This document shows, piece after piece, positions 15,953 to 17,800 of a stretch of DNA of 56,559 nt. The translations under genes and the position numbers were made by a program. Every line of letters begins with the position of its first letter. Positions within the stretch are counted from its first letter, which is position 1. The stretch spans positions 1 through 56,559 of the forward strand of contig JACQCA010000065.1 of assembly GCA_016201865.1 (NCBI GenBank), given 5' to 3'. Source of the stretch: Nitrospirota bacterium (GTDB lineage: Bacteria; Nitrospirota; Nitrospiria; JACQBZ01). The notes beneath the pieces are model-generated. The model ran no database searches and was not told where the DNA came from. It worked only from the letters and a program-made list of their open reading frames with translations.

Positions 15953-16522
15953 ATGATGTGGCCGGGCCGGTTTTCAAGGGTGATCCTTTTGATTCTGATC
16001 GGGATGCTTCTGGCGTCGCTGGCCTGGGTCTTGTCGGTCGGAATCGAGCAGAGGGACGCGGTGCCTTCGTCGAGAGGGTTGATGACGAAAGCGGATATTG
16101 AAATGGATCGGTTTTCGATGCGGCAGATGCGTGACGGTGCCTTGGAATGGGATATTCGGGCAAACCGGGCGCAGTTGTTTGAGGATCGGCATGAGGCCTC
16201 CCTGCAGGATATGGAGGCGACCTTGCGGACGGCGGACGGTCTCCAGGTCCGTTTTTCGGGCGACCAGGCTCTTTTGAATACCGAGACCCATGATTTCGAA
16301 ATCAAAAAGAACGATGGCGATTTGACCGTGTGGATGAACAACGGTTACACGATTGAGGCCCCCTCATTGACCTGGAGGGAGCAACAACGAGAAATCGTAT
16401 CGGATCGCCCGATTCGGATTTCCGGTCAAGGGCTTCAAATGCGCGGCGGCCGACTGATTGTGAAACCCGAAAGCCAACAATTTACGATCCATGAGGATGT
16501 GCATGTCACCGTGGGGCCTTAG
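15953..16522 (+). CDS. lptC: LPS export periplasmic protein LptC
   Basis: 189 residues: a single N-terminal membrane helix (VILLILIGMLLASLAWVLSV) followed by a periplasmic LptC/OstA-like beta-jellyroll, with FSGDQALLNTETHDFEIKKN and repeated short strands. LptC bridges the LptB2FG extractor and LptA. The start is set at 15953 because the upstream part of the frame would contain the promoter. The gene leads lptA and lptB as in many diderms; the lptA start lies 20 bases inside its 3' end. Confidence 0.88.
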   Translation: MMWPGRFSRVILLILIGMLLASLAWVLSVGIEQRDAVPSSRGLMTKADIEMDRFSMRQMRDGALEWDIRANRAQLFEDRHEASLQDMEATLRTADGLQVRFSGDQALLNTETHDFEIKKNDGDLTVWMNNGYTIEAPSLTWREQQREIVSDRPIRISGQGLQMRGGRLIVKPESQQFTIHEDVHVTVGP

Positions 16523-17032
16523 AATCGTCCTGAGCGTCGTTGTTTTTTTTTAAACAGCCGACCGCTGATCGCGGCGGAGTCGGCTTCCTCCCCGAAGACA
16601 CTCTCCATCACGTCAAAAAACATGACGGTCAAAAACCTTGAGCATCAGGCCATCTTCGAGGGGGACGTGGTGATGACCAAAGAAAACATGACCATTACGG
16701 CCGATCATGCGGAAGTGACCTTTACGTCGACTCCATCTCCCGGAGAGACGACGAAATCCGATCCGGGGCTGTTATCGGCCGAGTCCCAATTCAGCCAAAA
16801 CGAGATATCGCTGATCCATGCCGAGGGCAACGTCGTGCTCCGGCAAGCCGATAAACGGGCCCAGTCCAAGGAGGCCTTCTACTATCAGAAGGAAGAGCGG
16901 GTGGTCCTGACCGGCGAGCCGACCGTCTGGGAGAAGGACTATCAAGTCACCGGTACCCAGATAACGATTTTTTTGCGGGAGAACCGGAGCCTGATCGAAG
17001 GCAGCAAAGTGGTGATCCATCCGAAAGAATAG
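16503..17032 (+). CDS. lptA: LPS transport protein LptA, with an apparent -1 frameshift in a T9 run
   Basis: Periplasmic bridge protein for lipopolysaccharide (OstA fold). The downstream frame gives about 160 residues with LptA-like repeats (LEHQAIFEGDVVMTKENMTI, IHAEGNVVLRQADKRAQSKE, LTGEPTVWEKDYQVTGTQI) but no usable start with a signal peptide. A good start, ATG 16503 with GAGG 6 bases upstream, begins a signal peptide MSPWGLRIVLSVVVFF and then meets TAA at 16551 directly after nine Ts (16543-16551). Shifting back one base continues as LNSRPLIAAESASSPK into the main frame, giving 176 residues. One missing T in the assembly, a true mutation, or programmed slippage (U UUU UUU) would each explain it. 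Confidence 0.8.
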
Positions 17033-17068: not shown

Positions 17069-17800
17069 ATGATGATGCTGTTGAGCGCCAAACATCTTGA
17101 AAAAAACTTCCGCAAGCGGAAAGTCGTTCAGGATGTGAGCCTGGAGGTCAAGACCGGCGAGGTCGTCGGGTTATTGGGACCCAACGGGGCCGGCAAGACC
17201 ACGGTCTTTTATATGATGGTCGGTTTGATCGCTCCGGATAAAGGAGAGATCCATCTTGACGATCGGCCGATCACCGATCTCCCAATGTACCAACGGGCCC
17301 GCCGGGGCATCGGGTACCTTCCGCAGGAACCTTCCGTTTTCCGAAAGCTGTCCGTCGAGGAAAATCTTCTTGCGATCCTGGAAACGCTCCCGCTGTCCTC
17401 CGCGGAACGTCAGGAACGCCTGCAGTCCCTTCTGAAAGAACTGAACATCGCTCATCTTTCCAAAAGCAAGGCCTATGCCTTGTCCGGAGGAGAGCGTCGT
17501 CGAGTGGAAATCACGCGGTCATTGGTCACCTCGCCCCGCTTTCTTCTTTTGGATGAGCCGTTTGCCGGTATTGATCCGATCGCGATTATCGACATCCAGA
17601 AGATCGTCGGCCAATTGAAGGAGCGGGGAATCGGAATCCTGATCACCGATCACAACGTGCAGGAAACGCTTGAAATTACGGATCGCTCCTATATCATTAA
17701 TGAAGGAGAGATCCTGGAATCGGGAACGTCGCGGGACATCGCCAACAGCTCCAAGGCTCGGGCGATCTATCTGGGCGAGCGGTTCCGTTTTCTTGAATGA
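17069..17800 (+). CDS. lptB: LPS export ABC transporter ATPase LptB
   Basis: 243 residues. Walker A GPNGAGKT (about 37-44), Q-loop, signature [10 protein letters not shown] and Walker [14 protein letters not shown] are intact; the whole closely follows the LptB/YhbG family, which powers extraction of LPS from the inner membrane. Three ATGs open the frame after CTCCGGAG, so the start could be 17069, 17072 or 17075. It is 36 bases after lptA and 37 bases before rpoN. Confidence 0.96.

What the first reader, a model, noticed from the sequence alone, without database searches (positions are those of the whole stretch)
16491..16560. lptA signal peptide broken by a T9 run: assembly error, phase variation or slippage
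ATG 16503 with a good ribosome-binding site codes for MSPWGLRIVLSVVVFF and hits TAA directly after nine Ts; one extra T (or a -1 slip on U UUU UUU) restores a full 176-residue LptA. LptA is essential in most LPS-producing diderms, so silent loss is unlikely. Long T runs are prone to polymerase slippage and to sequencing error.
Basis: partly seen in the sequence, partly recalled or inferred. Interest (0 to 1): 0.6.

Follow-up and report, generated by a model that had tools for sequence, protein, structure and literature searches.

The report
Conserved slippery run in lptA
A bacterium's gene for LptA, which carries lipopolysaccharide to the cell surface, is split by a run of nine Ts that related species also carry at the same spot, so the cell most likely makes the protein by a copying slip at the run, as a few other bacterial genes are known to do.

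Summary
The lptA leader (ATG 16503) meets TAA at a T9 run (16543-16551), and the LptA body continues in the -1 frame. It is not an assembly error or an isolated mutation. All 7 species genomes of this Nitrospirota family (3 genera, several projects) carry exactly T9 at this place. In 5 of 7 the same break follows, with identical spacing; in 2 of 7 the frame is intact but T9 is kept. In the broken genomes the -1-frame LptA is under purifying selection (dN/dS 0.04-0.20) and models as LptA; no second copy was found. Best explanation: LptA is made by slippage on the run, most likely by RNA polymerase (as reported for Shigella mxiE); -1 ribosomal frameshifting is not excluded. Support comes from a second gene found on the way: the DUF374 (LpxJ-like) acyltransferase gene in the lipid A cluster. 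Across Nitrospirota, 101 of 109 loci are broken in the same direction at an A-run, always 9 or longer; the 8 unbroken loci have no run above 5. Nitrospirota therefore appear to live with, and probably use, slippage at 9-nt runs. Slippage itself is inferred; no RNA or protein data were available.

The parts
15953..16522 (+). lptC (start codon chosen by eye; ATG 15956 also possible); stop TAG overlaps the lptA leader and is in the frame of the LptA body
   Evidence: PF06835 47 bits, TIGR04409 68 bits
16503..16553 (+). lptA leader ORF (signal peptide start), 16 codons then TAA; upstream in-frame ATGs at 16491 and 16497
   Evidence: sequence; homologous leaders in six relatives
16493..16496 (+). 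GAGG, likely ribosome-binding site of lptA; GGGG or GGAG in relatives
   Evidence: sequence; inference
16543..16551 (+). T9 run, proposed slippage site
   Evidence: T9 in 7/7 family genomes
16523..17032 (+). -1 frame holding the LptA body (open from 16523; LptA sequence from about 16550; stop TAG 17030-17032)
   Evidence: PF03968 68 bits; dN/dS 0.04-0.20; fold matches E. coli LptA
17069..17800 (+). lptB, ATPase of the LPS exporter
   Evidence: TIGR04406 374 bits

Best explanation
lptA in this Nitrospirota genome is a working gene whose coding sequence is split by a conserved T9 run. RNA polymerase slips on the run (nine A in the template, nine U in the RNA), so a share of the transcripts carry a changed number of U. 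Those whose length restores the frame give one protein with a complete signal peptide and the LptA body. Unslipped transcripts give only a 16-residue leader. LptA is thus made at a set fraction of LptC and LptB. Shown: the run, the break, their conservation, purifying selection on the downstream frame, the LptA fold, and no other LptA copy in the assembly. Inferred: that slippage happens, that RNA polymerase rather than the ribosome does it, and that it is tuned rather than only tolerated.
For: The same T9 and the same break are found in G000, G001, G002, G005 and G006, with identical 49-nt spacing from run to the conserved LSI(S/T)S motif. G003 and G004 keep T9 but are in frame, which shows that leader and body belong to one protein. 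dN/dS of the body between broken genomes is 0.04-0.20, including G001-G002 (dS 0.75) and G005-G006 (dS 0.74), so the break has been carried through speciation. There is no start codon in the body frame between 16523 and ATG 16622, which lies inside conserved LptA sequence. Only one LptA is found; the other PF03968 hit lies in a 797-residue open frame, presumably LptD. There is no conserved downstream RNA structure. A second gene in the same genomes, the DUF374 acyltransferase, is broken at A9-A11 in the same direction in 6/6 family genomes that have it. Across Nitrospirota 101 of 109 loci are broken, all with A>=9; the 8 unbroken loci have no run above 5. There the run length is kept although its position against the codons shifts (TCA AAA AAA AAC; TCT AAA AAA AAA; CGC AAA AAA AAA), which fits slippage that depends on run length better than a ribosomal heptamer. 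At that site Ser is TCA in 76/76 loci of f8 and f10, against 35/443 Ser codons in the same domains. Published precedent: mxiE of Shigella (run of U), dnaX of Thermus (A9), selection against runs of nine in many bacteria (PMC1088944).
Against: No transcript or protein data. At lptA itself the T9 also contains U UUU UUU in the right phase and is followed directly by a stop codon, so a -1 ribosomal shift would give the same protein. In-frame T9/A9 runs are common in this family's genes, so the run alone is not a signal. Two of seven relatives need no slip.
Confidence: 0.66

Rival explanations
1. Programmed -1 ribosomal frameshifting at U UUU UUU before UAA makes LptA; transcripts are uniform.
For: The slippery heptamer is in phase in all five broken genomes, and the frame-0 stop TAA follows directly in 5/5.
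Against: No conserved downstream hairpin: z -1.9 in G000 but -0.7 or higher in G001, G005 and G006. No Shine-Dalgarno-like element just upstream of the run was seen by eye. In the companion gene DUF374 the run stays at 9 or more while its phase and flanks change.
Confidence: 0.2
2. The break is a tolerated accident: an ancestral longer run lost a T, and background slippage happens to give enough LptA; nothing is tuned. (Shares the slippage mechanism with the best explanation; not exclusive with it.)
For: Event counts on the gene tree tie: three independent breaks, or one break and two restorations. G003 and G004 are also compatible with a shortened T10.
Against: Same T9 and spacing in five species, with conserved third bases.
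Confidence: 0.4
3. Phase variation by replication slippage: cells switch LptA on and off.
For: Long T runs mutate easily (general knowledge).
Against: Exactly T9 in 7/7 species, no 8 or 10. LptA is normally essential in LPS producers (general knowledge).
Confidence: 0.05
4. Assembly or sequencing error.
For: The window comes from a 97-contig genome; homopolymers are error-prone.
Against: The same state recurs in five species genomes from several projects; the same assembly holds a T10 elsewhere; single-contig genomes show the companion DUF374 break.
Confidence: 0.03
5. Readthrough of the lptC stop gives an LptC-LptA fusion, since the LptA body is in the lptC frame.
For: lptC and the LptA body share a frame in the broken genomes.
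Against: The lptC stop is TAG in four and TAA in one; this route explains neither the conserved leader nor T9, and it is absent in G003 and G004.
Confidence: 0.02

Closest known systems
Shigella flexneri mxiE (transcriptional slippage on a run of U; T9 from memory)
   Same: T run, leader ORF and body ORF out of frame, an added nucleotide fuses them, the longer product depends on slippage (PMC1088944)
   Different: Plasmid-borne regulator of a secretion system; here a chromosomal LPS transport gene, split inside its signal peptide
Thermus thermophilus dnaX (A9)
   Same: Nine-nucleotide run, chromosomal housekeeping gene (PMC1088944)
   Different: There standard decoding gives the full-length product; here it gives only the leader
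Citrobacter rodentium tssM1 (A11, about 20% frameshift, shown to be transcriptional)
   Same: Interrupted gene rescued by slippage, no ribosomal stimulators nearby (PMC4256274)
   Different: Both products are made as sizeable proteins there; here the short product is a 16-residue leader
Rescue of broken genes by slippage in Buchnera and Blochmannia
   Same: Frame breaks at homopolymers in needed genes (PMC5009743)
   Different: Endosymbionts; this is a 57% GC groundwater-type lineage with few such runs
GeneTack clusters of conserved frame transitions (Antonov 2013, PMC3711429)
   Same: Same kind of evidence; poly-A/T sites conserved over genera
   Different: No lptA, LptA or lipopolysaccharide in the main text; it names a tetraacyldisaccharide kinase/acyltransferase cluster, so overlap with the lipid A genes should be checked in its supplement

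Membership tests
Programmed transcriptional realignment (slippage) genes | A or T run of about 9 at the frame transition | tested here: met
   T9 at 16543-16551
Programmed transcriptional realignment (slippage) genes | Run and frame transition conserved among homologs | tested here: met
   T9 in 7/7, break in 5/7 family genomes
Programmed transcriptional realignment (slippage) genes | Downstream frame under purifying selection | tested here: met
   dN/dS 0.04-0.20 among broken genomes
Programmed transcriptional realignment (slippage) genes | Transcripts of mixed run length from uniform DNA | not testable with these tools
   No RNA reads available
Programmed transcriptional realignment (slippage) genes | Full-length product detected | not testable with these tools
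   No proteomics available
Programmed -1 ribosomal frameshifting | Slippery heptamer in phase | tested here: met
   U UUU UUU before UAA
Programmed -1 ribosomal frameshifting | Conserved stimulator (3' structure or upstream SD-like element) | tested here: not met
   Folds differ between relatives, z between -0.7 and +0.4 in three of four; no SD-like element by eye
LptA (PF03968) | Pfam profile match above cut-off | tested here: met
   68 bits against a cut-off of 20.4
LptA (PF03968) | LptA-type fold | tested here: met
   AlphaFold2 model, mean pLDDT 76.6; best PDB match E. coli LptA 2r1a, E 3e-8
LptA as defined by NCBIfam TIGR03002 | Equivalog cut-off 71.7 bits | tested here: not met
   62.1 bits; so LptA identity rests on Pfam, fold and the lptC-lptA-lptB order, not on this model
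Phase-variable gene by slipped-strand mispairing | Run length varies between relatives | tested here: not met
   Exactly 9 in seven species; within-population variation not testable

The most novel reading that the evidence does not exclude
In Nitrospirota, RNA polymerase slippage on 9-nt runs sets the dose of LPS-pathway proteins: the DUF374 (LpxJ-like) acyltransferase across much of the phylum and, in one family, also the LPS bridge protein LptA, giving a shared, possibly condition-dependent control of outer membrane assembly.
Probability: 0.18. Interest if true: 0.8.

Novelty: new member of a known kind. Interest (0 to 1): 0.6.

Why it matters
A normally essential outer-membrane gene that depends on a copying slip for every working molecule would be unusual outside endosymbionts and mobile elements. 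The companion DUF374 case, conserved in about a hundred Nitrospirota genomes including single-contig ones, offers a testable system, with cultured relatives likely in the same class (Nitrospira; general knowledge). It also warns that annotation pipelines may call these genes pseudogenes or truncate them, hiding LptA and a probable lipid A acyltransferase.

Tried and rejected
The first named-genome scan found nothing; a profile scan gave four named relatives. The four-letter translation code did not help because an earlier and a later TTTT were read as well. Hairpin as a ribosomal stimulator: seen in G000 only. Other frame changes at runs were inspected: L017/L056 is an ATGA stop-start overlap after a conserved A9; L108 and L120 are gene ends; L080/L118 and L130 can be read as in-frame genes. 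L010, L119 and L122 were left unresolved. Ancestral state of the lptA break: tied by event count on a weakly supported tree. No paper linking lptA or DUF374 to slippage was found in the library.

Full report
Observation. The window is contig C87 of a 2.47 Mb, 97-contig genome. At 16503 an ATG with GAGG six bases upstream opens the lptA leader, MSPWGLRIVLSVVVFF, which ends at TAA 16551-16553. The T9 run is 16543-16551. The LptA body is open in the -1 frame to TAG 17030-17032 and matches PF03968 at 68 bits. lptC lies upstream and overlaps the leader; lptB follows. One T9 or A9 in a window of this size is expected by chance.

Relatives. No other member of the genus is held; family and order hold seven species genomes in three genera. 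All seven carry exactly T9 at the same place in the lptA leader. In five (G000, G001, G002, G005, G006) the bases after the run are AA, the leader stops, and the body is in the -1 frame; the distance from run to the conserved LSI(S/T)S motif is 49 nt in all five. In G003 and G004 the distance is 50 and 53 nt and one frame runs through. Four relatives have named records from groundwater metagenomes of different projects: Nitrospirota, class Nitrospiria. In 23 loci of other families of the class no T9 was seen and the signal peptide is in frame.

The gene works. dN/dS of the LptA body between pairs of broken genomes is 0.04 to 0.20 where it could be computed. Silent sites are saturated or nearly so between genera, but the broken pairs G001-G002 and G005-G006 have dS about 0.75 and dN/dS 0.11 and 0.20. 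Codon-position counts over 35 codons of the body show its frame: 84, 89 and 278 changes at positions 1, 2 and 3. The AlphaFold2 model of the body (pLDDT 76.6, seven sequences) matches E. coli LptA best. No second LptA is found in the assembly; the other PF03968 hit lies in a 797-residue open frame, presumably LptD. There is no start codon in the body frame between the run and ATG 16622, so re-initiation would lose the signal peptide and the first conserved strand.

Is the run itself kept? Val-Phe-Phe before the break is GTT TTT TTT in all seven species. In the rest of lptA only 7 of 62 amino-acid-invariant codons keep their third base, so three of three is unlikely (about 0.0014 if independent; the species are related, so this is a rough guide). 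Phe is TTT in 48% of codons in the window. In-frame T9/A9 runs are otherwise not rare in this family: of 90 distinct runs of nine or more, many sit in open genes.

A second gene. Checking the other runs showed that the DUF374 acyltransferase gene is broken at an A9-A11 run, in the same direction, in all six family genomes that have it; the C-terminal part continues in the -1 frame with a conserved sequence. In the window's genome this gene lies between msbA and a fused waaA-lpxK gene, in the lipid A cluster. DUF374 includes LpxJ, a lipid A late acyltransferase (PMC6148475), but function was not tested here. Across the class, 86 of 89 loci are broken at A>=9; family f8 has exactly A9 in 59 of 59. 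With twenty further loci, most from outside the class, the count is 101 broken of 109; all broken loci have A>=9, and none of the eight unbroken loci has a run above five. Several are single-contig genomes, so this is not an assembly effect. The run keeps its length while its codon phase and flanking codons change between families, and at the site Ser is TCA in 76 of 76 f8 and f10 loci, against 35 of 443 Ser codons in the same domains. This favours transcriptional slippage, which depends on run length, over ribosomal frameshifting, which depends on a heptamer in phase. The argument is indirect.

Mechanism at lptA. Slippage by RNA polymerase on T9 would give transcripts with a changed number of U; those in frame encode the full signal peptide and body. 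Known cases include mxiE, dnaX of Thermus and tssM1. Ribosomal -1 slippage on U UUU UUU UAA would give the same protein; no conserved structure was found to support it, though the stop directly after the run in five of five could aid it. I put about two thirds on the transcriptional mechanism and one fifth on the ribosomal one. Whether the break is tuned or merely tolerated is open: the gene tree gives equal event counts for one break with two restorations and for three breaks. The confidence given to the 'tolerated accident' reading overlaps with that of the best explanation, because both rest on slippage.

Verdict. The kind of mechanism is known; lptA and the Nitrospirota DUF374 gene appear to be new members, as far as the searched literature shows.

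Noticed in passing
L020, L087, L235 (G000:C91:38292-38755, minus strand) and 108 further Nitrospirota loci: DUF374 (LpxJ-like) acyltransferase gene broken in the -1 direction at an A run of 9 or more in 101 of 109 loci; unbroken loci have no run above 5. Stronger and wider than the lptA case.
   Followed up: yes
L235:5876-8395 minus and L235:4380-5894 minus: Apparent fusions in the lipid A cluster: waaA with lpxK in one 839-residue frame, and an LpxL-type acyltransferase with a HAD phosphatase (GmhB-like).
   Followed up: partly
L017 and L056: Conserved A9 directly before an ATGA stop-start overlap of two genes in G000 and G001; no slip is needed, but the run is kept.
   Followed up: partly
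L021, L106, L128 (BamA-like); L077, L104, L138 (IspE-like); L062, L121 (FtsX-like): In-frame T9 runs at the same codons in several family members; gene names guessed from sequence, not tested.
   Followed up: no
L011 (G000:C55:2443-2452): T10 directly after a TTGACA-like hexamer, outside open frames: possible promoter spacer run.
   Followed up: no
window:16520-16522: The lptC stop lies in the same frame as the LptA body, so lptC and the body form one frame interrupted by a single stop.
   Followed up: partly
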